Part shown: one piece after another, positions 1 through 12,239 of the stretch | How positions within the stretch are numbered: the first letter of the stretch is position 1 | How the letters are laid out: every line of letters starts with the position of its first letter | From: Acidobacteriaceae bacterium | Lineage (GTDB): Bacteria; Acidobacteriota; Terriglobia; Terriglobales; Acidobacteriaceae | DNA length: 12,239 bases | NCBI GenBank assembly: GCA_003140705.1 | Contig: PLKU01000552.1 | Span: forward strand, 1,806-14,044 | Direction of reading: 5' to 3' | The notes under the pieces: generated by a model | Seen by the model: only the letters and a program-made list of their open reading frames with translations | Database searches by the model: none | What the model was told of the DNA's origin: nothing | Made by a program: the position numbers and the translations under genes

Positions 1-2940
1 AAGGAGTTTGGCACGCACGGCGATGGAAAAGCGGATGACTGCGCGGCGATCCAAGCCGCGATTGACAAGGCTGGAAGTGCAGCCCAAGAGGGTATTGTGT
101 TCGTGCCCTCCGGCCGCTACAGGCTTACGCGGACCATATACATTTGGCCAGGTGTCCGCGTGATTGGCTATGGGGCCACGCGCCCAGTGTTTCTGCTGGA
201 GGACAACTCACCGGGGTTTCAAAAGGGTGTGGGCGTCATGGTAATGTTCACGGGTGGTCGCCCTAGACAGATGCCTCCCGGCATGGGTGTGCGGGTTCCG
301 TTTTCACCGCCGGGCACGGTGCCGCCTGATAGCGCTATCGCTGACGCTACTCCCAGCACATTTTATTCGGCTATGAGTAACATCGATTTCGAACTTGGCG
401 AAGGCAACTCAGCCGCCGTTGCCATCAGGTTCCATGCGGCGCAGCACGCTTACCTCAGCCACATGGACTTCCATATCGCGTCAGGACTTGCGGCACTGAC
501 CGAGATCGGCAACGAGGCTGAGGATCTACATTTTTACGGCGGACGCTACGGCATCCTGACAGATAAGACCTCGCCGGCCTGGCAATTCACGCTGATCGAT
601 TCAACTTTTGAAGGCCAGCGGGAAGCGGCGATCCGCGAGCATGAGGCAGGTCTCACCCTGATCCGCGACACGTTCCGCAATGTGCCTACCGCTGTAGATA
701 TCGATCCACAGTATTCCGACGAGTTGTGGGCCAAGGACTGCCGATTTGAAAACATCTCAGGCCCCGCGGTGGTCATCAGCAACGAGAAAAATCCTCTAAC
801 TGAGATCGGTTTTGAAAACGCTGTGATGCAGGATGTGCCGACCTTTGCTCGGTTCCGCGAAAGCGGGAGAACTGTGCCGGGCAAAGGTGCGATTTACAAG
901 GTGAGGAATTTCAACTACGGGCTGATTGTGCCCGGCGAGGGAATGACTGGCAGCATCGGCATGCAGTATGACGGGGCGTCGCTAAGCAGCTTGCCCATTC
1001 CGCTGCCGCCGGCCATCTCAGCGCTGCCACCCACTGAAGAATGGGTGAATGTCCACACACTTGGTGTGACAGGAGACGGCACAACCAACGACACGGCCGC
1101 GATTCAAAAAGCAATCGATACGCATCGAGTGCTTTATTTCCCCAGCGGTCACTACATTGTCAGCGACACACTAACCCTGAAATCTGACACAGTGCTGATT
1201 GGTTTGCACCCTACGCTGACGCAATTTGACCTGCTGGATAGCACTGCGGGTTATCAGGGTGTGGGACCACCGCGTGCCGTGATTTCTGCGCCTGCGGGCG
1301 GTAAGAATATCCTTTGCGGATTTGGAGTTTTTACTGCTGGCGTGAATCCGCGCGCAGTTGGGGTCCTGTGGAGAGCCGGCGCCGGTTCACTAATCGACGA
1401 TGTGCGCTTTCTTGGCGGCCATGGCAGCGGAACCAACCCGTACAACAACAACCACACCGCTGATTCCGATTTGCACAAGCGCTGGGACGGGCAGTATCCC
1501 AGCTTGTGGGTGAACGATGGAGGTGGCGGCACCTTCGCAGACATTTGGACTCCGAACACGTTTGCGCAGGCGGGGTTCTATGTTTCGAATACGAAGACCC
1601 CGGGCCACGTTTATGAACTCTCGACTGAGCACCATGTCCGCAACGAAATCCGGTTTGACCACGTGGAGAATTGGGATCTGAATGCTCCGCAGACCGAAGA
1701 GGAAGCCGGCGAGAGTCCCGAATCGTTGTCATTGGAATTTGATTGGTCAAAGAACATCACTGTCGCCAACTATCACGGCTATCGCGTCACTCGCTCGCGC
1801 GCACCGTTTTCCGCTGCTGTGCGGCTGTTTCATTCAGGGGAGATCCATTTTCGCAACGTGCATGTGAATGCTGAAAGCGGATATGCGATTTGCGATGACA
1901 ACGGCTGCGGTACATTTCTTCGGGTGAGCAAGTTCCCATACGAAAATGGGATTGAAGATGTGACGCATCATCTGGAAGTCCGCGAACGAGAATTCGCTAT
2001 GCTCGATATTCCGGCAGAGCCGCTCAGGCCCTCAGTGCAGGGTGACTGGGGAGTGTTTGCCGCTGGGTCCAAAGTTGAAAAGCTTGAAGACGGCTTCTTT
2101 TCCATTTCGGGCGCAGCGGTAGATGCATCCGGGAAGCTTTATTTTGTGGACCATCATCAGCAGCGCATTTATGGCTGGTCGGCAAGCGAGGGACTCACCG
2201 TTGAACGAGACAATCCGCTGGACCCGGTGAACCTGGCATTCGACAAGGCTGGGGACCTGCTGGTTGTCTCGTCTGATGGCCCGGAGGGAACTGTCTACTC
2301 ATTCCGCCCCGGTTCCCCGGAAGACCAGTTGACGGTGATTGCGCCGCAAGCTACCAGGCCGCATCCGGGTGCTGCAGTTTTGCTGCCGGTGAATTACTGG
2401 AACAATGGAGAGTTCAAGAACCAGTTCGACTTCAGCACCTACACATACACAACGCTGTGCGAGATGTTTGTTCAGGACGTGTCTACGCCCAAGACGAGAG
2501 AATATGTGTCGCCCGACGGGAGTGTATATCTGCCTGCCGGACGCGTATTTCAGCAGGGGCCACCGGACTGGAGCGGCTGGCGATTCTCTGACGACCTTGA
2601 CGCCGAAGGTTTTATCGCCGCCCTCCCCGGTGAGCACGTTTTTATCAGCAGCGCATCAGAAGACCGGACCTACCGCGGACTCGTGGCTGGAGACGGCACA
2701 CTGACCGATCTCAAGCCATTTGCTGAGAGAGGCGGTGAGAGCGTCGCAGTGGATGGCAAGGGCAACGTGTATGTAGCCAACGGCCAAATCTTTGTGTATG
2801 ACTCGGCTGGAAAAGAGATTGGCGAAATCGACGTGCCGGAGCGTCCTATTGATCTTGCGTTCGGCGGAGCGGATCACCGCACGCTCTTCATTCTCGCCCA
2901 CCACGCGCTGTTTGCAGCGACGATACGAAGTTCAAAATGA
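1..2940 (+). CDS. Two-module pectate-lyase-3/GH55-like beta-helix protein fused to an SMP-30-like beta-propeller (5' end outside window)
   Basis: The reading frame is open from base 1, so the N-terminus and any signal peptide lie outside the window; a GTG at 97 is internal, because coding similarity begins before it. Visible length is 979 residues (numbered from base 1). Two copies of the pectate-lyase-3/GH55 opening motif are seen: GTHGDGKADDCAAIQAAID near residues 4-22 and GVTGDGTTNDTAAIQKAID near 355-373. Each is followed by a V-x-F/YFPSGxY stretch typical of the first strands of a right-handed beta-helix. Paired helices are the architecture of GH55 exo-beta-1,3-glucanases. From about residue 681 the sequence changes to a propeller-like pattern (AAVDASGKLYFVD, GNVYVANGQIFVYD, AFGGADHRTLFI) matching SMP-30/gluconolactonase endings. 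The likely role is exported polysaccharide binding or hydrolysis; the substrate is unproven and catalytic residues were not assigned. Such proteins are often simply labelled gluconolactonase. It ends in TGA with no clear terminator. Confidence 0.85.
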   Translation, partial: KEFGTHGDGKADDCAAIQAAIDKAGSAAQEGIVFVPSGRYRLTRTIYIWPGVRVIGYGATRPVFLLEDNSPGFQKGVGVMVMFTGGRPRQMPPGMGVRVPFSPPGTVPPDSAIADATPSTFYSAMSNIDFELGEGNSAAVAIRFHAAQHAYLSHMDFHIASGLAALTEIGNEAEDLHFYGGRYGILTDKTSPAWQFTLIDSTFEGQREAAIREHEAGLTLIRDTFRNVPTAVDIDPQYSDELWAKDCRFENISGPAVVISNEKNPLTEIGFENAVMQDVPTFARFRESGRTVPGKGAIYKVRNFNYGLIVPGEGMTGSIGMQYDGASLSSLPIPLPPAISALPPTEEWVNVHTLGVTGDGTTNDTAAIQKAIDTHRVLYFPSGHYIVSDTLTLKSDTVLIGLHPTLTQFDLLDSTAGYQGVGPPRAVISAPAGGKNILCGFGVFTAGVNPRAVGVLWRAGAGSLIDDVRFLGGHGSGTNPYNNNHTADSDLHKRWDGQYPSLWVNDGGGGTFADIWTPNTFAQAGFYVSNTKTPGHVYELSTEHHVRNEIRFDHVENWDLNAPQTEEEAGESPESLSLEFDWSKNITVANYHGYRVTRSRAPFSAAVRLFHSGEIHFRNVHVNAESGYAICDDNGCGTFLRVSKFPYENGIEDVTHHLEVREREFAMLDIPAEPLRPSVQGDWGVFAAGSKVEKLEDGFFSISGAAVDASGKLYFVDHHQQRIYGWSASEGLTVERDNPLDPVNLAFDKAGDLLVVSSDGPEGTVYSFRPGSPEDQLTVIAPQATRPHPGAAVLLPVNYWNNGEFKNQFDFSTYTYTTLCEMFVQDVSTPKTREYVSPDGSVYLPAGRVFQQGPPDWSGWRFSDDLDAEGFIAALPGEHVFISSASEDRTYRGLVAGDGTLTDLKPFAERGGESVAVDGKGNVYVANGQIFVYDSAGKEIGEIDVPERPIDLAFGGADHRTLFILAHHALFAATIRSSK

Positions 2941-3252: not shown

Positions 3253-3280
3253 CAGATGAGATTACCTCTGTGGATTTCGG

Positions 3281-3309
3281 TTGTGCGCGTTATTGATGAA
3301 GCCTACAAT
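3281..3309 (+). promoter_or_regulatory. Putative sigma-70-type promoter of the methyltransferase
   Basis: TTGTGC (3281-3286) and TACAAT (3304-3309) are separated by exactly 17 bases, the optimal spacing for a housekeeping sigma factor. The -10 box matches the consensus at 5 of 6 positions and the -35 box at 4 of 6. Transcription would begin near 3316, giving a leader of about 50 bases before the ATG at 3367. This is a by-eye match. Confidence 0.45.
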
Positions 3310-3350
3310 GCAAAAGTTCCCCAATCCACAGCAATTACAACCACACTTCG

Positions 3351-3356
3351 AAAGGA
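3351..3356 (+). promoter_or_regulatory. Ribosome binding site of the methyltransferase
   Basis: AAAGGA lies 10 bases before the ATG at 3367. Together with the promoter position it favours this start over an in-frame ATG at 3256, which would lie upstream of the promoter. Confidence 0.5.
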
Positions 3357-3366
3357 CTCCCACCTC

Positions 3367-4377
3367 ATGGAAGAGCCGCGCATTGATCACATCATGCAGA
3401 TTGGCCTTGGTTTCTGGGCCTCAAAGACGCTGCTGAGCGCAGTAGAGATAGAACTGTTCACGGAACTGGCAAAGCACCCCGAAGACCTTCCCACAATAAC
3501 CGGACGCCTCGGTCTGCACCCACGGTCTGCCCGCGATTTTCTTGACACACTGGTTGCGCTGAAGCTGCTTGATCGGCGCGACGGAGTTTATTACAACACT
3601 CCTTCGACTGACCGCTTTCTGGACAAGCGCAAGCCGTCGTATACGGGAGGGATCTTGGAGATGGCGAATCGCCGCCTCTACCCTCACTGGAACAATCTGA
3701 CCGCCGCATTGAGGACGGGCCTACCGCAGGGAGAGGGTGGACCGAGCGAACCTGACACTTTCGCCACCCTCTACGCCGATCCAGAGCGGTTGAAGGGGTT
3801 TCTGCGAGCCATGACAGGGATCAGCCATGGTGGTAACCAGGCGATCGCGAGGCAGTTTCCGTGGGCGCAGTACAAATCGGCAGTGGATGTGGGCACCGCG
3901 CAAGGGGATCTCATCGTCCAGGTCGCCCTGGCCAATCCGCACATTGCCGGCATGGGCTTCGATCTGCCTGAAGTGGGTCCTATCTTCGAGGACTATGTTG
4001 CGGCCAATGGGCTTTCTTCTCGTGTTGAGTTTCGTTCAGGAAGCTTCTTCGACGCACCGCTGCCTGAGGCCGATGTAGTGATGATGGGGCACATTCTTCA
4101 CGACTGGGACCTGGAGCAGAAGAGGCTATTAATCGCCAAGGCGTATGCGGCTATCAAACCCGGTGGTGCATTTATTGTGTACGAAAGCATTATCGACGAT
4201 GACCGTAAGGAGAATGCCTTTGGGCTCATGATGAGTCTGAACATGCTCATCGAGACGCCTGGGGGATTCGACTACAGCGGGGCCGACTGCATGGGCTGGA
4301 TGAAGGAAGCCGGCTTCAGCGAAACGCGTGTAGAAGACCTGGTTGGGCCCGACTCCATGGTGATTGGAATCAAATAG
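3367..4377 (+). CDS. SAM-dependent O-methyltransferase (acetylserotonin/hydroxyindole O-methyltransferase-like, Methyltransf_2 family)
   Basis: A protein of 336 residues, normal for this family. The N-terminal 90 residues form a winged-helix dimerisation-type domain ([19 protein letters not shown], then [21 protein letters not shown]). The Rossmann methyltransferase domain follows: motif I is [10 protein letters not shown] (about 172-181), a variant of the usual DVGGGxG, and the acidic FDLPEV follows it. HILHDWD contains the presumed catalytic His245 found in plant-type O-methyltransferases, then [11 protein letters not shown]. The family transfers a methyl group from S-adenosylmethionine to a hydroxyl of a small aromatic or polyketide-like molecule in the cytoplasm; the substrate here cannot be told. 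The start at 3367 has a ribosome binding site and family-like sequence begins there, while the 37 residues upstream look non-coding. It has its own promoter and faces the esterase-GH28 chimera, with 91 bases between the stops. Confidence 0.88.
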
Positions 4378-4468: not shown

Positions 4469-5893
4469 TCAGTGCAATTGATATGGCTGAGCGGGCAAAG
4501 GGACGGGATCATCGGGTTTTGGCGCATCGGTGGGTGCGGCGCCGTTCAGACCAATGCCGGTTACGTTGCTGGTATTGATCAGGGCTCCCGCGTAGCCGGT
4601 AACGCTGATGTTTTTGATCTCAGCCCGACGAACATTCGCAAGATAGATTCCTTTGGCGCAGGTACCGGTGATATTGACCAGGGAGAAGCCTTCAAGAGGC
4701 TTGTCCGGATGGACGCTGGTGCCGTCTACAAGGATTGGCGCATCGGTGACGCGAATGTTTGAAAATCGAAAGTTCCTGACCGTAGGAATGCCATCGTTGC
4801 CGGGGACAGGGGATTCATCCTGCTTGCCGCTGCCGAGCAACTTGAAACGAATCAGTCCGCCCTGGGTTCCGGAGACGTCGAGGTTGTTGGCAACGATGTC
4901 CTCGATAAACGCGCCGCGACCGGGACGGGTTTTTATGTAGAGAGCAAAGGTCTTTGCGCCGGTGAACTTGCAGTGTTCGATGCGAACGTTGCGGATGCCA
5001 CCCGATGTCTCGCTGCCAATGCCGATGCAGGCGAAGACCAAGCCCGCAAATGTGCAATTGGAGATGTGCACATCCTCAGTGGTTTGGTGCAACAGATAGC
5101 CTTCGCTGCCGCCGCCGGAGCAACCAAATGCGCCGATATGCTTCGCATCCACTTCGGGAAGCTGGGCGAGATAGTCGATGCCGCGCATCGCGTCCCAGAG
5201 CTCATAGAGTGCGAAGGTATCTCCAATCAGCATCGGCTTGAGGCTGGCTTCGCCGTGTTCGCCAGTGGGGCCGGTCGCGAGCGAGGAGCCAGGCTTGGCG
5301 GGATCGGGATACTGCAGGCGCTCACCCTGGCCGATTGGATCGTACGACAAAACGACAAAACCGTTTCGAGCAAATAAGGCAGCGGCGCTGTAATCACCGG
5401 CCTTGCCGGCAGGGCTGTGGCCCGGGCTCATCAGAATGGCCGGAAACTTGGTGTCCGCAGGTGCGCCATCGGGAACATAGAGCAGCGCCGTAACCGGAAA
5501 GCTGGGTTGACTGTCGAAAAGGACCTTCTCAATTCGAAAGCCGTCGGCCTGCGTGGAGCCGAGAGTTCTGGGATTGAGCGGCGTGCGCTCAGGTAGCGTG
5601 CCGACGAGTGACATGATCTGTTTGCGGACCCTTGCTTGACGCGCTTCAGCGTCGGCAAGTGATTTGATCAGGCCAATGCTTTCGGCGCGGGTCGAGGTAT
5701 ACGCGGCGGCGAGGTTGTCAAGATATTCGGTGAGGTGCGTGCGGCCGATTTGTGCGGGGCTGTTTGGATCACTCCTGGAGCCTGGAAGGGGAGCCGGACG
5801 AACAGGCGGAGTGGGGGTCTGAGCCAATGCGACGCCGGCAAGTACGGCGCCAGCGCACAGTGTGCGAACAACGGAAGAGATAGCCCTGCACAT
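4469..5893 (-). CDS. Chimeric protein: N-terminal half of an acetylxylan-esterase-like alpha/beta hydrolase joined in frame to the C-terminal half of a GH28 polygalacturonase
   Basis: A protein of 474 residues. Residues 1-24 are a Sec signal peptide ending ALA-QT. Residues about 45-262 match large exported acetylxylan-esterase-type hydrolases: ALLYVPDG, FPAILMSPGHS, GFVVLSYDPIGQGER, and the nucleophile elbow FGCSGGG with Ser259. The acid and His of the triad should follow this point, but the sequence changes abruptly at about residue 263 into GH28: GYLLHQTTEDVHISNCTF, IGSETSGG (292-299), YIKTRPGRG (319-327), then beta-helix turns to a normal C-terminus. The GH28 front half, with the catalytic Asp motifs (NTD and DD), is absent, and the expected GHG His is not seen. 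Neither half appears catalytically complete, so this is best read as a deletion-fusion relic that remains open, or as an assembly error. It follows the ThuA-like gene by 50 bases, likely in one transcript. Confidence 0.82.
   Translation of the reverse strand: MCRAISSVVRTLCAGAVLAGVALAQTPTPPVRPAPLPGSRSDPNSPAQIGRTHLTEYLDNLAAAYTSTRAESIGLIKSLADAEARQARVRKQIMSLVGTLPERTPLNPRTLGSTQADGFRIEKVLFDSQPSFPVTALLYVPDGAPADTKFPAILMSPGHSPAGKAGDYSAAALFARNGFVVLSYDPIGQGERLQYPDPAKPGSSLATGPTGEHGEASLKPMLIGDTFALYELWDAMRGIDYLAQLPEVDAKHIGAFGCSGGGSEGYLLHQTTEDVHISNCTFAGLVFACIGIGSETSGGIRNVRIEHCKFTGAKTFALYIKTRPGRGAFIEDIVANNLDVSGTQGGLIRFKLLGSGKQDESPVPGNDGIPTVRNFRFSNIRVTDAPILVDGTSVHPDKPLEGFSLVNITGTCAKGIYLANVRRAEIKNISVTGYAGALINTSNVTGIGLNGAAPTDAPKPDDPVPLPAQPYQLH
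5093..5116 (-). other. Fusion junction between the esterase and GH28 halves
   Basis: The nucleophile Ser259 codon is at 5117-5119, followed by three Gly codons and then SEGYLLHQ, which reads as the GH28 segment that normally follows an SGRD/AGRD-type motif. The join therefore lies at or near the GGC repeat. Short GGC/AGC microhomology there would suit a deletion between two neighbouring genes. The exact base cannot be fixed without the parent sequences. Confidence 0.6.
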
Positions 5894-5900
5894 CACGATG

Positions 5901-5943: not shown

Positions 5944-6978
5944 TCAGTTCTGTGGCGCGACATTCTGGATTGGGACATGGTCTGCGGGGATATGCTGCGC
6001 GACAATCGGCTTCTGCACCTCGCGGACCAATGGTGAGGCGCCGTTCAGGTACGTCGGGTCCATGGAAGCGATATCGGCGCGAAAACTCACAGTGTTTGCG
6101 GTGGGAAAGCCGGCCGGGATCTTCTGTGTGACTTTCCCGGTGGCTACCCACTCGGTGCCGCGCTGCAACAAGGTCATCAGACCAACGCAACTTAATGCGG
6201 ATACATCGTGCCCCATCGTGGTGTGAAAGACTCTTCCCTTTCCGTAACTCACGACCATCACCATCGGCTCGTCACGATCTGTGCCCTTGTTTTTTGGATC
6301 GGAGTGGGCAGTGGCGAGTACGGTCATGTTCTTGCCTGGACCGCGAAGGGTGGCGTAAAGCTCGTCGGCAGCGTGCATCCATACGGGCGGCAAACCTTTC
6401 ATGATTGGATGCTCGGATTGGCGCGTGACAACCTGAAATGGAAGCCGCGCCCCATGCGATCCGGCAGATCCTGGACTGGGATCGGAGACCAGCTTGCCAT
6501 CCTTGATGAACCACATGGGCCCTGCCTTCTCCGTGCGGCCTCTCCAGCCGCCAATGCCGATCATCAGGTTATACGCCGACCAGTCGGGGAAGGCATTATC
6601 AGCCGCATGGACCACCACAAGGCCGCCGCCCTTGCTCACGTACTGCTCGAACTGTGAACGCAGAGCCTCGGGCCAGTCGGGGGCATCGTAGTTCGATACG
6701 ATCACCTGATAATGGCTGAGGTTTGGCTTGAAGTCGCTCAGGTCCTGATCCGATGGAGGCGCGGTCATCACCGTGACCTGAAACAGCCCGGTCTCCTCGA
6801 GCTCCGCCCGCAGCACAGGAGTGGTGAGTCTCCAATTGTGGTAAGGTCCGCCGCTTTGTCCATCGAGTAAAAGTACCCGGATCATCGTGAGTCCATGAGC
6901 AGAAGGCGATTGGGCTATGAGGGCAAACGGGGCAACAAGAAGAATGCCGAACAGAACAAGGATTGCCAAGTGCCTCAT
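5944..6978 (-). CDS. Exported ThuA-like domain protein
   Basis: A protein of 344 residues with a signal peptide (MRHLAILVLFGILLVAPFAL, cleavage after LIA before QS). The rest matches the ThuA-like fold, a glutamine-amidotransferase-like Rossmann domain: IRVLLLDGQSGGPYHNW, YDAPDWPEALRSQFEQYV, GGGLVVVHAADNAFPDW, EHPIMKGLPPVWMHAADELY, and MVMVVSYGKGRVFHTTMGHD. ThuA domains are linked to sugar metabolism (trehalose utilisation) and, in exported forms of soil bacteria, sit beside glycosidases; the precise reaction is not established. About 55 residues beyond the last core motif have no recognised domain. The start is the ATG at 6978, with GAGG 8 bases upstream; a GTG at 6984 is too close to that site. 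It lies 113 bases after the CHAT gene stop and 50 bases before the chimeric gene, so it probably heads a two-gene unit or is reached by read-through from the caspase operon. Confidence 0.87.
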   Translation of the reverse strand: MRHLAILVLFGILLVAPFALIAQSPSAHGLTMIRVLLLDGQSGGPYHNWRLTTPVLRAELEETGLFQVTVMTAPPSDQDLSDFKPNLSHYQVIVSNYDAPDWPEALRSQFEQYVSKGGGLVVVHAADNAFPDWSAYNLMIGIGGWRGRTEKAGPMWFIKDGKLVSDPSPGSAGSHGARLPFQVVTRQSEHPIMKGLPPVWMHAADELYATLRGPGKNMTVLATAHSDPKNKGTDRDEPMVMVVSYGKGRVFHTTMGHDVSALSCVGLMTLLQRGTEWVATGKVTQKIPAGFPTANTVSFRADIASMDPTYLNGASPLVREVQKPIVAQHIPADHVPIQNVAPQN

Positions 6979-6986
6979 GATCACAG

Positions 6987-6990
6987 CCTC
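6987..6990 (-). promoter_or_regulatory. Ribosome binding site of the ThuA-like gene
   Basis: GAGG on the minus strand, 8 bases before the ATG at 6978 and only 2 bases before the alternative GTG at 6984. A small hairpin (GCGGA/TCCGC arms, 6994-7010) sits just upstream of it. Confidence 0.5.
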
Positions 6991-7057
6991 GTAGCGGAGG
7001 GTTGTTCCGCGCAGGAGAAGAATACACCAGACATTGAGTTTTCACGCGCAGTGGCAT

Positions 7058-7094
7058 TTAGCAATGAACAGCTCTTAGCAATGAACAGCTCTTA
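7058..7094. repeat. 17-bp tandem duplication at the end of the CHAT gene
   Basis: The unit TTAGCAATGAACAGCTC occurs twice in perfect tandem and is followed by a third TTA, 37 bases in all. On the coding strand each unit starts with TAA, and the first TAA is the stop codon of the TPR-CHAT gene, so the stop and the following 14 bases have been copied once. The unit length is not a multiple of three. This looks like a recent slippage event. Confidence 0.85.
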
Positions 7095-10000
7095 TTGGTA
7101 GTTGCCGATGAGCACAAACGGCGCCCAGTAGAACGGATGCGAGTACTTCGACTCTTTGCCCGCGGCGGTTTCAGCCTGCTCGAGCTGAGGTCCCCGCTCT
7201 TTTGTGCTGTTCGGCGTTGCGGCACCTGCATCGTGGAGCAGCGCCAACTGCGCCTGTCGCAGGGCCTCCGCTTTGCCCGCCGAAGGATTCTTGACCCAGC
7301 GGACATAGAAGTCACTCATCAATCGGCTAGTACTGGCGTCGTTCACATCCCACAGCGTGGCCAGCACCGCTTCCGCATCCTTTTGCTGAGCGATCATTCC
7401 CAGGCTATCCATCTCAGTGCCGTCCCTGGTCTTGTAATCCTTCGCGGTGCTGCAGGCCGAGAGGGTCAGCAGGCGTGTTCCGTGAAAGGCAACCGTGGAA
7501 TGTTCCATCTCAGAGAGATTCCACTCATAGCCCTTGTCTTCTCCGCTGTCCTCTCCGCCGAGCATCAGGAATGGCTCTTCGCCGCTGCCCGTTTCCACCA
7601 CGAAGTGGCTGGCAATATGGACTACGGGAAATCTCTTCTCCCCGCCAAGCTCCGTTTTCAGCGCGGCTAACGTGAACTGATCATTGGGGAGCAGCTTTCC
7701 TTCCATGGGGCCGTGCGAATCAGGCGCCGAGGGGTCATGGACCACCGCATCCAACTCCGGCATCACACCGGGCAATGCGGGCAGGCCGCCGTAGCTCCTT
7801 GACAGGCCCATCGCCAGCACACTGGGCTTGGTCCCGTTGGTCAGCGGTGAATCCGTCATATGACCGTAACTCTCGGGAGTAAAGAGAACGTTTTTGAAGC
7901 GCTCAATCATGTAGCTATGGCCGTCATAGAGCGCGGCCATGGGCAAGTACCGCAAGGCGTCGTCCAAGGACCAGAGCAGCGTTGGAACACCGGCTTGCGC
8001 GCTTGTGGGCGGTTCGATGGTCTTCAACTCACCTTCTACAGGAGCCACGACCATTGCGTACAACTGGGTAAGGAGTGGTTTGGGATCAGAGGTGCGCGCA
8101 GCGAGGTTCTCCACGACCTCAAACACCTTGCTGCGCAACTCTGCAGGGGTTGCCTTCAATGCGAACTTCTTGCGCGTAGTGGCCGTGACCACAATCGCGT
8201 AGACATGATCCTGCCCCATTAGAATACGGACGCCCATGACGCGCGGTCCCAGCTTTGCCAGCGTGCCCTGCAGATAGCTCTGGCTGGAGTCGTCTCCGGC
8301 TTGAAGTTCATTGTCTTTCGGGGCGGCGGACCTGGCCTCTAGCCCGGGAAATATGGTGCCGGTGAAAAAGGCGAAAACCTCTGTATTTCCCTGCGTAAGA
8401 CTGGCGTTCAGTTTCTTCAGTTGAGCAACTTCCGCTGGGGTGCGCGCCGGCTTGGCCTGTAGAGTCGCATGTTGAAGGCTCAATTCCTCAAGAGCGATTA
8501 CCTTTTGCTGCTGCGCGTCCAACTCGCTTTGCGCTTTTTGTTGCACGGCATTCAGTTTCAGGGGTTCAACTTTAGCCGCGGCATCGGGAGCGGCACCGCG
8601 CACCACGTCTTTCAACTCCTGTTCCTTGAGGAGATCGAGAACCTGTTCAGCTTCGCCAAGCCTGCCGGTTTCGACAAGGAGCTCGGCCAGAATCCGATAT
8701 GTGGATGACCTCGACTGCGTAAATCCCGCTTGCAAATCTTTTTCCAGACCGACGATGTTCTTGCGAATCTGCTGATAGCTGTTCACCGCGTCCAATCCGA
8801 AGAAGATTGCTATCTCCGGGCGATGCTGCTTTTGGAAGCCGATCATCATCGCGGTATCGATTGCGCCCTGCATGTCCGGATCGCCTGCGGACTTGGCCAG
8901 TTCCAAGGCGGCGAGTGAATACGGAAACGCTGTCTGCGGCTGCCCCATTTGCGCATAGGCCGCGCCAATGAAGCCCAGAGCCATGGCTTCTCCGCGTGTC
9001 TCTTTCACTTCGCGCCAAACAGGAAGCGATTGGAAGCTGACCTCCAGCGCCTTGTTGAACTGACCCAAATCGAGATACGCTTTGCCGAGATTGCTCAAAG
9101 TCATTGCTTCGCCGCGGCGGTTTCCCACTTCACGCCAGATGGGCAAGGCCTGGTTATAGAAGCCCAATCCCTTCTGGGTTTGACCCAAATCGGCATAAGC
9201 CCTGCCTATATCGTTCAGATCAAGCGCCTCTCCGTTGCGGTTTCCCACTTCACGCCAGATGGGCAACGCCTGGTTGAGATAATCCAACGCGGTTTGCTTC
9301 TGCCCCAGATCGGAATAGACGCGGCCTAAATAATTCAGCGTGCTCGCCTCACCTTGGCGGATACCGAGTTCACGCCAGATCGCGAGCGCCTGATTGTAGG
9401 CCTCGAATGACTTCTGCTTCTGCCCCATATCGGCATAAGTGCGTCCGATGTTCCATAGAGTCAGCGCCTCGCCTGCGCGGTTTCCCTCTTGGCGCCACAG
9501 AGGCAGGGCCTGATTGAGATAGTTGATCGATTCGGACCCTCGGCTCATATCGCTATACACCCTTCCGATAGCGTCTAGTGCGCCGGCCTGGCCGTTGATC
9601 GAGCTCGTTTCGCGCGAGATCGTCAGCGCCTGATTCAGGAGATCCAGCGCCTTGTCCTCCTGTGCAAGATTGGAATAGGTCCGGCCGATGTTCCAAAGAG
9701 TCAGCTCTTCGCCCCGGCGATTGCCCGTCTCCCGCATCACCGGCAGGGCCTGGTTGAACATGTCCAGTGCCTTGTCCTCCTGGCCCAGGTCTGCATAAAC
9801 CCTGCCGATATAGTTCTGCGTCAGCGCCTCGCCGCCGCGGCTACCACCGTTGTGCTCAATGGTCAGGGCCTGGTTGTAGTCGTCCAGGGCCTTATTCGTG
9901 TTGCCCGCCTCACGATAGAACTCGCCAAGATAATTCAGCTCGATCGCCACATTCCTCAAGTTCTTTGCGGATCGTGCTTCAGTGAGCTTCTGCTCGTGGT

Positions 10001-10109
10001 CCTTGGTTCGATCGTTCAACGACCCACTTTGGCCCGAGGCCAAAGATGCAGCTGTCAACAATCCAATGCTCAAGCAAGTAACAGTGCGAACTACTTTTGC
10101 CAAAGTCAT
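7092..10109 (-). CDS. Exported TPR-CHAT protein (caspase-clan peptidase domain)
   Basis: A protein of 1005 residues. The first 26 residues form a signal peptide (LSIGLLTAASLASGQ), which decides the ATG at 10109; an upstream in-frame start at 10199 would lie inside the caspase gene and bury the signal. Residues about 52-450 are ten tetratricopeptide repeats of exactly 40 residues (consensus GEALTLxxIGRxYxDLGQ, then ALDxxNQALPIWREVGNR). A further TPR-like helix pair and a coiled coil (about 508-565, rich in Q, K and E) follow. The CHAT domain occupies roughly 625-1005, with the presumed catalytic His835 in HIASHF and Cys886 in LTLSACSTA, ending PFYWAPFVLIGNY as usual for CHAT. CHAT domains are separase/caspase-like cysteine peptidases, typically controlled by the attached repeats; known relatives act in cell-death and phage-defence systems, though those are mostly cytoplasmic. 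The gene lies 34 bases after the caspase stop and is probably cotranscribed with it. Confidence 0.9.
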   Translation of the reverse strand: MTLAKVVRTVTCLSIGLLTAASLASGQSGSLNDRTKDHEQKLTEARSAKNLRNVAIELNYLGEFYREAGNTNKALDDYNQALTIEHNGGSRGGEALTQNYIGRVYADLGQEDKALDMFNQALPVMRETGNRRGEELTLWNIGRTYSNLAQEDKALDLLNQALTISRETSSINGQAGALDAIGRVYSDMSRGSESINYLNQALPLWRQEGNRAGEALTLWNIGRTYADMGQKQKSFEAYNQALAIWRELGIRQGEASTLNYLGRVYSDLGQKQTALDYLNQALPIWREVGNRNGEALDLNDIGRAYADLGQTQKGLGFYNQALPIWREVGNRRGEAMTLSNLGKAYLDLGQFNKALEVSFQSLPVWREVKETRGEAMALGFIGAAYAQMGQPQTAFPYSLAALELAKSAGDPDMQGAIDTAMMIGFQKQHRPEIAIFFGLDAVNSYQQIRKNIVGLEKDLQAGFTQSRSSTYRILAELLVETGRLGEAEQVLDLLKEQELKDVVRGAAPDAAAKVEPLKLNAVQQKAQSELDAQQQKVIALEELSLQHATLQAKPARTPAEVAQLKKLNASLTQGNTEVFAFFTGTIFPGLEARSAAPKDNELQAGDDSSQSYLQGTLAKLGPRVMGVRILMGQDHVYAIVVTATTRKKFALKATPAELRSKVFEVVENLAARTSDPKPLLTQLYAMVVAPVEGELKTIEPPTSAQAGVPTLLWSLDDALRYLPMAALYDGHSYMIERFKNVLFTPESYGHMTDSPLTNGTKPSVLAMGLSRSYGGLPALPGVMPELDAVVHDPSAPDSHGPMEGKLLPNDQFTLAALKTELGGEKRFPVVHIASHFVVETGSGEEPFLMLGGEDSGEDKGYEWNLSEMEHSTVAFHGTRLLTLSACSTAKDYKTRDGTEMDSLGMIAQQKDAEAVLATLWDVNDASTSRLMSDFYVRWVKNPSAGKAEALRQAQLALLHDAGAATPNSTKERGPQLEQAETAAGKESKYSHPFYWAPFVLIGNYQ
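8757..9956 (-). repeat. Ten-unit 120-bp DNA repeat encoding the TPR array
   Basis: Ten consecutive 120-bp units, each coding for one 40-residue TPR. The registers are 9956-9837, 9836-9717, 9716-9597, 9596-9477, 9476-9357, 9356-9237, 9236-9117, 9116-8997, 8996-8877 and a degenerate 8876-8757. The segments at 9117-9146 and 9237-9266 are identical over 30 bases, exactly one period apart. Units 3 and 5 share LWNIGRTY, while 2, 4 and 6 share GRVY, suggesting that pairs of units were duplicated together. Confidence 0.9.
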
Positions 10110-10143
10110 TTTTCGTCTTTCGATACCCGGACCCGTTATCGAA

Positions 10144-11412
10144 TTACGGCAGGGCTTTCCTGGCCGCCGCTTCGGCTGCTCGAAGCGCAAAATCCGCATC
10201 CGGCGAACTCCTGGTCATCACGGGATGCTGATGCAGCCCCGCGGCGGAAACACGATGAGCCACTTGTTGCGCCACTTCGGCATAGACCTGGCTCAGTGGC
10301 ACCATGCCCTTATCATTCTTCAACGCCTGAAGCAGGAAGTAGGTGAAGTACCCGTGGCGCAGTTCGTCGCTTTCAAGAGACTCCTCGTTGACCTGACTGG
10401 CCGACATCACGATTCGCCCAGTACCTTCGCTCATCCGCGCCAGCATTTGCTGAGACGGCCCCGTATTTGCAGGTCCCGCGCCCGTCGTGCCAGAGTTCAT
10501 CTGGGCCGATTCATTTTTCATGGAGCCGCCGCTGTAACAGGTATCCAAGATGACCGCAGTGCGCAACGCCTTCATGCGTGTTGCAACCGCATTCGCCAGC
10601 TCGACCATGGGATACGCAGTGGCAAACATGGCGTCCTCGTCGAATTTGCCAGCGTTGTAGACCTCGGTGTCGTAGGTGACCAGATAATTTGCTCCACCCG
10701 CGGTGTCCATGGTTCTCGGCGTGCCGTGCGTTGCAACATAAATCAGCACCAGGTCATTGGGCTGCGCACGGCGGGCGATCATGTTCAGCTCTTCTTTGAT
10801 TTTCTTCGTGGTGGCCTGCTCATCAATCAGCACTAGAACATTGGCTGCTGGGAAATTGCCAATCCCCGGATCCTTCAATTGTGCTGCAATCGCATTTGCA
10901 TCCGCGGTTGTGTAGTTCAGGCGTGGAATTTCATGGTCGCTAAAGTGGCCGATCCCGATGACAAGCGCCCACTTCTGCTGCACCGGGCCGGGCGGCGGCG
11001 CAGGTTTGACGGGGGTGGATGCCGCGTCTCCCTCGGCGGTAAGGCCGCGCCCGCCCGGCGTGGCGAGCACGAGAGGGTTCAGTCCTTCCTGGAGCGATTC
11101 TGAACCATTGAAACGCGCTTTTTCCAACGCATATTTGGCAAGCGCGTCGTGGCCAAGCTTCTGCTCCACGAGACTGCGGTAGTACCAGGCGTCCCCCAGT
11201 TCTCCGCATTCTGAAACTGCGTGCTTGAGCAGTTGCAATGCGTCTTCAAATGCGGCCCGGTCGGCCTGGGGGCTGATCCGCTCCAGCGCTTGAACCACCA
11301 GATCCTTGCCTGCCCCGCAGCGTGCCCCCTGGCACCACGCGGGCAGGGAAACGCAGGCTGTAGCAGCCACCAGGGCCGAGCGCGCCACGAAGCTTCGCCA
11401 ACCGCTTCTCAT
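10144..11412 (-). CDS. Exported C14 caspase-family (metacaspase-like) peptidase with short helical repeat region
   Basis: A protein of 422 residues. The N-terminus is a signal sequence (SALVAATACVSLPAWCQG); a lipoprotein site at Cys20 (ATAC) is possible but weak. Residues about 35-105 look like one or two TPR-type helical pairs (GDAWYYRSLVEQKLGHDALA), followed by a Pro/Ala-rich linker. The caspase domain runs from about 148 (WALVIGIGHF) to about 410. The dyad is intact: His229 in YVATHGTP and Cys292 in ILDTCYSGG. Bacterial members of this family cleave after basic residues and are often secreted or regulatory. The ATG overlaps the TGA of the preceding gene by ATGA, implying translational coupling, and the TPR-CHAT gene follows 34 bases after the stop. 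The substrate is unknown; the partner CHAT protein is an obvious candidate. Confidence 0.9.
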   Translation of the reverse strand: MRSGWRSFVARSALVAATACVSLPAWCQGARCGAGKDLVVQALERISPQADRAAFEDALQLLKHAVSECGELGDAWYYRSLVEQKLGHDALAKYALEKARFNGSESLQEGLNPLVLATPGGRGLTAEGDAASTPVKPAPPPGPVQQKWALVIGIGHFSDHEIPRLNYTTADANAIAAQLKDPGIGNFPAANVLVLIDEQATTKKIKEELNMIARRAQPNDLVLIYVATHGTPRTMDTAGGANYLVTYDTEVYNAGKFDEDAMFATAYPMVELANAVATRMKALRTAVILDTCYSGGSMKNESAQMNSGTTGAGPANTGPSQQMLARMSEGTGRIVMSASQVNEESLESDELRHGYFTYFLLQALKNDKGMVPLSQVYAEVAQQVAHRVSAAGLHQHPVMTRSSPDADFALRAAEAAARKALP

Positions 11413-12239
11413 TTTGCCGCCACAGATTGACGCGCCCGCGCCTTCATTGCGGTGAGCACATGTGCGCTCACTCCACCACCGGTCAGACCTTGCTGGCCTG
11501 CAGCGCTCAGGTCGAAATTGACGGCCTTCGAGGAACGGATCGTCTGCGCGACCGTGTCGTCGTCCACACCGGACTTGATCATTGAAATCACCTGGGCATT
11601 GGTGAGCGCTTTTGCTGGCGCAGTGGACTTGATGTCCGATCCCGATTTCGCATTCAGTTTTTCAATCTTGATTGTTGTCGGCGTGCCTTTCTGGATCTGC
11701 TGATCCTCGAGCTTTCTGTAATGTTCGATTGCCGTCTCAATGCGCTTCTGGGGTTGAAGAAAGTACTTCTCGACTGGTTTTGCATCAATGGCTTTACCGT
11801 AGTTAATGGCTGCTTCGTCGAGGAATTTCATTGCGGACGCTTCATCCTCGGCCTGATAGGCCAGCGCCTCATCGGCCACGCCAATGTTGTACAGCCGGTA
11901 AGCATCGTCTTGCAGCTTGGGAAGCGGGGGGGCTGTCTCAAACGTCTCCTGGGCGCGCTGCCACAATCCGGCCTCCGCCAGCTTGTCGCCCGCATCAAGC
12001 GCGCCTTTTTGCCGCGCAAGATATACCTCCACCGACTCTTCGGTGTTCACGAGGTGTTGGGCGATCTGGCGCACGGCATCGGCCATCAGCAGCGCTTGGA
12101 GCTCATCATCGGTCGGAGGATTCAGAGCCTCGCTGCTTGTTCCACCTTTGATCCGTTTCCATGTGGTGGTGACTGCTCCTTTCACGCCCCCGGACGCAGA
12201 GTTGCCAAAGCCGTCAAACTCTTCGTCGTATTTCGCGGT
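11409..12239 (-). CDS. Protein of unknown function, C-terminal 276 residues (5' end outside window), first visible gene of the caspase operon
   Basis: The frame stays open to the right edge, with protein-like sequence (YDEEFDGFGNSASGG) before the in-frame GTG at 12185, so that GTG is probably internal and the gene continues upstream. Visible regions: a helical stretch near the edge (LLMADAVRQIAQHLV), a TPR-like or helical-repeat middle (GDKLAEAGLWQRAQETFE and RLYNIGVADEALAYQAEDE), a linker (PTTIKIEKLNAKSG), and a C-terminal module of about 60 residues (11606 to about 11430: LTNAQVISMIKSGVDDDTVAQ, then NFDLS, GVSAHVLTAM). This last pattern resembles a short domain I recall from acidobacterial hypothetical proteins. 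I do not recognise a function. Tight coupling to the caspase (ATGA overlap) suggests a partner, substrate or regulator. The resemblance of its middle to exported TPR-like lipoproteins is only an impression. Confidence 0.75.
   Translation of the reverse strand, partial: TAKYDEEFDGFGNSASGGVKGAVTTTWKRIKGGTSSEALNPPTDDELQALLMADAVRQIAQHLVNTEESVEVYLARQKGALDAGDKLAEAGLWQRAQETFETAPPLPKLQDDAYRLYNIGVADEALAYQAEDEASAMKFLDEAAINYGKAIDAKPVEKYFLQPQKRIETAIEHYRKLEDQQIQKGTPTTIKIEKLNAKSGSDIKSTAPAKALTNAQVISMIKSGVDDDTVAQTIRSSKAVNFDLSAAGQQGLTGGGVSAHVLTAMKARARQSVAAK

What the first reader, a model, noticed from the sequence alone, without database searches (positions are those of the whole stretch)
4469..5893. In-frame chimera of a decapitated GH28 polygalacturonase and a truncated acetylxylan esterase
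The protein starts as a signal-peptide-bearing alpha/beta hydrolase, reaches the nucleophile elbow GCSGGG (Ser259), then within about four residues becomes the second half of a GH28 beta-helix (TTEDVHISNCTF, IGSETSGG, YIKTRPGRG). By family knowledge, the esterase lacks its acid and His, and the GH28 half lacks the NTD and DD catalytic Asp motifs. An intact frame across the join with no stop codons suggests a recent deletion between two neighbouring genes, selection for a new binding protein, or a mis-assembly.
Basis: partly seen in the sequence, partly recalled or inferred. Interest (0 to 1): 0.75.

Follow-up and report, generated by a model that had tools for sequence, protein, structure and literature searches.

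The report
Broken in-frame fusion of two enzymes
In an uncultured bacterium, two genes for predicted plant-polysaccharide-degrading enzymes have been spliced into one reading frame that lacks key working parts of both; this looks like a recent accidental rearrangement rather than a new kind of enzyme.

Summary
The chimera is in the sequence, on the minus strand (ATG at 5893, stop 4469-4471, 474 aa). Residues 1-262 differ at one position from an intact 746-aa esterase-family protein (P0003); residues 263-474 differ at four from the end of an intact 475-aa GH28 (P0006). The fusion lacks the GH28 DGID and GDD motifs and all of the esterase after its nucleophile elbow. No other genome showed it in overlapping draws of 80 genus, 398 family and 397 order genomes. 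One further record, P0002, has the same join and one different residue, which argues against a one-off assembly error. The deletion story needs amending: in 8 of 8 relatives where the genes adjoin, GH28 precedes the esterase, the reverse of the fusion, so a simple deletion works only if this lineage had another order. The join lies on an S-G-x-G codon stretch shared by both genes in phase, which would explain the site and the open frame. Best reading: a short-homology rearrangement relic. Mis-assembly is less likely but not excluded without reads. A new function is unsupported.

The parts
5108..5893 (-). Esterase-derived part, residues 1-262: N-terminal segment (signal peptide judged by eye) and first part of an alpha/beta hydrolase, ending at the nucleophile elbow GCSGGG
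   Evidence: 1 difference in 262 from intact 746-aa P0003; AXE1 match 18.4 bits, below cut-off 21
4469..5107 (-). GH28-derived part, residues 263-474 and stop: C-terminal beta-helix coils without DGID and GDD motifs
   Evidence: 4 differences from intact 475-aa P0006; Beta_helix 26.3 bits, GH28 10.7 bits below cut-off 22.9
5107..5119 (-). Join region, codons S-G-G-G plus one base, a short stretch that both parents share in the same codon phase (esterase SGGG, GH28 SGRG)
   Evidence: sequence, residue comparison, codons in relatives
5944..6984 (-). ThuA-family gene, same strand, 47 bp upstream of the fusion frame (GTG at 5896); same transcript is inferred
   Evidence: ORF, PF06283 107 bits; 85% match in G030 behind the same upstream cluster
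3256..4377 (+). O-methyltransferase gene, convergent with the fusion, 91 bp between the two stop codons
   Evidence: ORF, PF00891 and PF08100

Best explanation
A real, recent, strain-level rearrangement relic. In an uncultured acidobacterium, DNA inside an esterase gene (after codon 261 or 262) was joined to DNA inside a GH28 gene at a short stretch shared by both genes (S-G-x-G codons), probably by strand slippage or another short-homology process. Because the shared codons are in the same phase, the new gene stayed in frame. If the esterase lay directly upstream of GH28 in this lineage, the event was a single deletion of about 2.2 kb; if the order was the one seen in relatives, it needed a duplication, circle or larger rearrangement. 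The 474-aa product keeps an export-signal-like start but only part of each catalytic domain and most likely has no esterase or pectinase activity. Shown: both parents, the join, the missing GH28 motifs, no close match to the missing halves in the held (73% complete) assembly. Inferred: mechanism, order before the event, loss of activity.
For: 1 difference in 262 from intact P0003 and 4 from intact P0006. A second record, P0002 (longest contig 10037, 4 member sequences), has the same join with one different residue, R373S. No listed match covers both halves in a genome other than the window's own among 80 genus, 398 family and 397 order genomes, which overlap; in the last two draws at most the best 4 first-look candidates per genome were scored. 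The missing esterase end and GH28 start have no close match in the own genome. In the 8 relatives with adjacent genes the join site is a 9-11 of 13 nt match, reached by 0.003-0.19% of all 13-nt window pairs between the two genes. Same-row AlphaFold comparison, best models: fusion pLDDT 58.6, pTM 0.42; intact P0006 69.1, 0.74.
Against: Gene order in relatives is GH28 then esterase in 8 of 8 adjacent pairs, so the simplest deletion does not follow from it. The DNA of the intact alleles of this species was not seen; the short homology is inferred from relatives 52-74% identical at protein level. No reads were available. The frame is free of stops and frameshifts, as a functional gene would be, though a very recent relic would be too. 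The structure comparison is weak: the five models of the control range from 54.2 to 69.1 mean pLDDT and those of the fusion from 54.4 to 58.6, so three of the five control models (59.3, 56.3, 54.2) are within one point of the fusion's range or inside it.
Confidence: 0.66

Rival explanations
1. Assembly or library chimera: two loci of one or more strains (ThuA-esterase and GH28-methyltransferase) were joined falsely in a fragmented draft genome.
For: The assembly has 582 contigs and 73% completeness. The fused order contradicts the order in relatives. Intact near-identical parents exist as separate records. Template-switch chimeras also favour short shared stretches (general knowledge) like the one at the join.
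Against: A shared stretch of about 13 imperfect nt is too short for a k-mer or overlap assembler to confuse (general knowledge). P0002 shows the same join with one different residue, so at least two non-identical records carry it; whether they come from independent samples is unknown.
Confidence: 0.22
2. A functional new secreted protein (for example a carbohydrate-binding beta-helix with a new N-terminus) kept by selection.
For: Open frame with an export-signal-like start next to ThuA; the last beta-helix coils are predicted about as confidently as in intact GH28.
Against: No other genome examined has it; both catalytic domains are cut in the middle; in the best models the coils from the join to about residue 350 are predicted with lower confidence than in P0006 and pTM drops from 0.74 to 0.42; near-identity to the parents leaves no divergence in which selection could show.
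Confidence: 0.05
3. Junction of a tandem duplication or excised circle of the usual GH28-esterase pair, reinserted between ThuA and the methyltransferase.
For: In the GH28-then-esterase order, esterase start joined to GH28 end is exactly the joint such an event makes (order).
Against: A tandem duplication would leave intact GH28 upstream and intact esterase downstream; the window has ThuA and the methyltransferase there and no further close copy was found in the assembly, which is however incomplete.
Confidence: 0.07

Closest known systems
Long (713-790 aa) acetyl-xylan-esterase-like alpha/beta hydrolases of acidobacteria (P0003 and relatives; Pfam AXE1 PF05448)
   Same: Residues 1-262 nearly identical to P0003, including the GCSGGG elbow
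   Different: The 484 residues after the elbow are missing
GH28 family protein (P0006; Pfam PF00295; distant relative of exo-poly-alpha-D-galacturonosidase 3jur)
   Same: Residues 263-474 nearly identical to the C-terminal part of P0006
   Different: The first 262 residues, with DGID and GDD motifs, are missing
Gene-fusion relics made by short-homology deletion in bacteria (general knowledge, no paper read)
   Same: In-frame join inside both genes at a short shared stretch
   Different: The order of the parts is opposite to the order of the two genes in relatives where they adjoin

Membership tests
GH28 | Pfam Glyco_hydro_28 above gathering score | tested here: not met
   10.7 bits, cut-off 22.9; intact P0006 57.3
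GH28 | Catalytic Asp motifs (DGID and GDD; their catalytic role is recalled) | tested here: not met
   Present in P0006, aligned with 3jur, absent from the fusion
GH28 | Right-handed beta-helix coils | tested here: met
   Beta_helix 26.3 bits, cut-off 25.9, best stretch residues 259-321 only; partial helix
AXE1-like esterase | Pfam AXE1 above gathering score | tested here: not met
   18.4 bits, cut-off 21; intact P0003 37.8
AXE1-like esterase | Nucleophile elbow G-x-S-x-G | tested here: met
   GCSGG at residues 257-261
AXE1-like esterase | Catalytic acid and His after the elbow (family knowledge) | tested here: not met
   Everything after residue 262 of P0003 is missing; the exact residues were not mapped
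Short-homology deletion relic | Join on a short stretch shared by both parents | tested here: inconclusive
   9-11 of 13 nt in 8 relatives; parental DNA of this species not available
Short-homology deletion relic | Parents in the order esterase then GH28 before the event | tested here: inconclusive
   8 of 8 adjacent pairs in relatives show the reverse; this species not seen

The most novel reading that the evidence does not exclude
The fusion is a secreted protein newly made by rearranging the usual GH28-esterase pair into a permuted order, already spread among strains (P0002 and window differ at one residue), and kept for a binding or regulatory role beside ThuA.
Probability: 0.05. Interest if true: 0.45.

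Novelty: new member of a known kind. Interest (0 to 1): 0.2.

Why it matters
It is a fresh example of how two genes of related function become one frame, caught with near-identical intact parents in public data. If real, a population holding intact and fused alleles would allow a direct look at the fate of new gene fusions. Otherwise it is a warning that such chimeras in draft genomes should not be annotated as bifunctional enzymes.

Tried and rejected
Contig-length matching as a stand-in for synteny: the longest-contig columns were compared. share one length (61993: esterase P0005, GH28 P0047, ThuA P0128); share none; share three short lengths (1687, 2215, 2621), probably by chance, which shows that a shared length is only a hint. 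Nothing is shared with the lengths of P0002 (10037), P0003 (10121) or P0006 (3797), so the intact allele's surroundings stay unknown. Within, eight lengths occur for both an esterase and a GH28 record, so the two genes probably share contigs in close relatives, but order cannot be read from that.

ThuA near the esterase or GH28 in relatives: not found in the stretches fetched, apart from the window's own contig (E 1e-20, 1e-15, 1e-12). G030 keeps the upstream cluster and ThuA but has unrelated genes after ThuA.

Viral contigs: two scans, no relative. Structure model: low confidence; the alignment mixes two families, so it was read only against a control with the same rows, and no fold search was run. 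Own-genome esterase pieces on C443 and C43 belong to a more distant paralogue, not the missing half.

Papers: seven searches; I saw listings and abstract starts only and opened no paper. Three returned nothing; no title listed in the others concerned this fusion.

Full report
The gene lies on the minus strand. The open frame is 4469-5896, the likely start is the ATG at 5893, and the product has 474 aa. The window is 1806-14044 of a 25,023-bp contig in an assembly of 582 contigs, 73% complete.

A protein search with the whole frame gave one further record of the same fusion (P0002) and then two separate families: esterase-family proteins of 713-790 aa (plus the shorter P0071 and P0112) and GH28 proteins of 436-503 aa, each covering 45-57% of the query. 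Only the best 120 of 3291 hits were listed. Best of each: P0003 (746 aa) and P0006 (475 aa). Residue by residue, the fusion differs from P0003 at 1 of the first 262 positions (166) and from P0006 at 4 positions after the join (406, 441, 461, 468). At the join the esterase reads S-G-G-G-T, GH28 reads S-G-R-G-S and the fusion S-G-G-G-S. Lost are 484 residues of the esterase and about 262 of GH28, the latter including DGID (from 232) and GDD (252-254), which align with 3jur.

Is it unique? The listed matches in 80 genus genomes (18 with a match at 1e-70, own included), 398 family genomes (31 at 1e-80, own included) and 397 order genomes (56 at 1e-60, own included) are esterase-only or GH28-only, the own genome excepted. 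The draws overlap, and at most the best 4 candidates of the first look were scored per genome.

Is it an assembly error? P0002 differs from the window at residue 373 (R to S), so a second, non-identical sequence has the same join, in a cluster of 4 members. The tool lists P0002 without a source, so its independence from the window's sample is not known. Reads were not available. The own assembly holds no close match to the missing pieces, but it is incomplete.

Gene order. Eight relatives were found with both genes side by side: G065, G021, G394, G175, G233, G305, G357 and G285. In the genus, 11 genomes other than the own one have both families; 2 of 11 are adjacent, 8 have them on different contigs, and G050 has them about 78 kb apart on opposite strands. 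The fusion has the opposite order, esterase then GH28, between ThuA and a convergent methyltransferase. A single deletion therefore requires an order not seen in any relative examined. One hint that ThuA, esterase and GH28 can share a neighbourhood is that P0128, P0005 and P0047, each about 80% identical to the window's parts, share the longest contig length 61993, the only length common to the tables; order and distance there are unknown.

Why there, and why in frame? In the 8 adjacent pairs, the DNA coding for esterase S-G-G-G and for GH28 S-G-R-G matches at 9-11 of 13 positions; 0.003% to 0.19% of all 13-nt window pairs between the two genes do as well. This is a proxy, since the parental DNA of this species was not seen, and the site was chosen after the join was known. 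It fits a short-homology event and would explain the kept frame, because the shared codons are in phase; by chance alone one join in three is in frame. A library chimera could choose such a site too.

Product. AlphaFold2 with 30 mixed rows gave, for the best model, pLDDT 58.6 and pTM 0.42; the same rows with intact P0006 first gave 69.1 and 0.74. In the best models the coils from the join to about residue 350 lose confidence; the last coils are similar. Against this, the control's five models spread from 54.2 to 69.1 and overlap the fusion's (54.4 to 58.6), and the alignment is noisy, so this is weak evidence. The missing motifs and half domains carry the argument: an inactive, perhaps unstable, exported protein is the likeliest product.

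Verdict: a real and recent fused relic is most likely (0.66), a chimera of assembly or library second (0.22).

Noticed in passing
window 5944-12185 (-): A 258-aa protein without Pfam match, a caspase-domain (Peptidase_C14) protein, a TPR-CHAT protein and ThuA stand in this order and are kept in the same order in G030 (L096).
   Followed up: partly
L068:140-1117 (-), outside the window: A phage-integrase-family gene near the contig start, beyond the methyltransferase. In G030 the genes after ThuA are unrelated, so the fusion-methyltransferase side may be an inserted region.
   Followed up: no
window 7058-7091: A perfect 17-bp tandem repeat (two copies) between ThuA and the TPR-CHAT gene.
   Followed up: no
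L082:1-1306 (G000:C443) and end of G000:C43: Pieces of a more distant esterase paralogue at contig ends, with a frame change, an in-frame TGA and unknown bases; possibly one gene split over two contigs.
   Followed up: partly
protein P0112: A 318-aa esterase-family protein that follows the family to about residue 250 and then turns into unrelated sequence; perhaps another break just before the nucleophile elbow, or a frameshift.
   Followed up: no
L036: A 72% relative of P0003 on a bin labelled Opitutia, outside the acidobacteria; mis-binning, mislabelling or gene transfer.
   Followed up: no
window 1-2940 (+): A large protein with two pectate-lyase-like (RHGA/epimerase) stretches followed by an SMP-30/NHL-type propeller region.
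   Followed up: no
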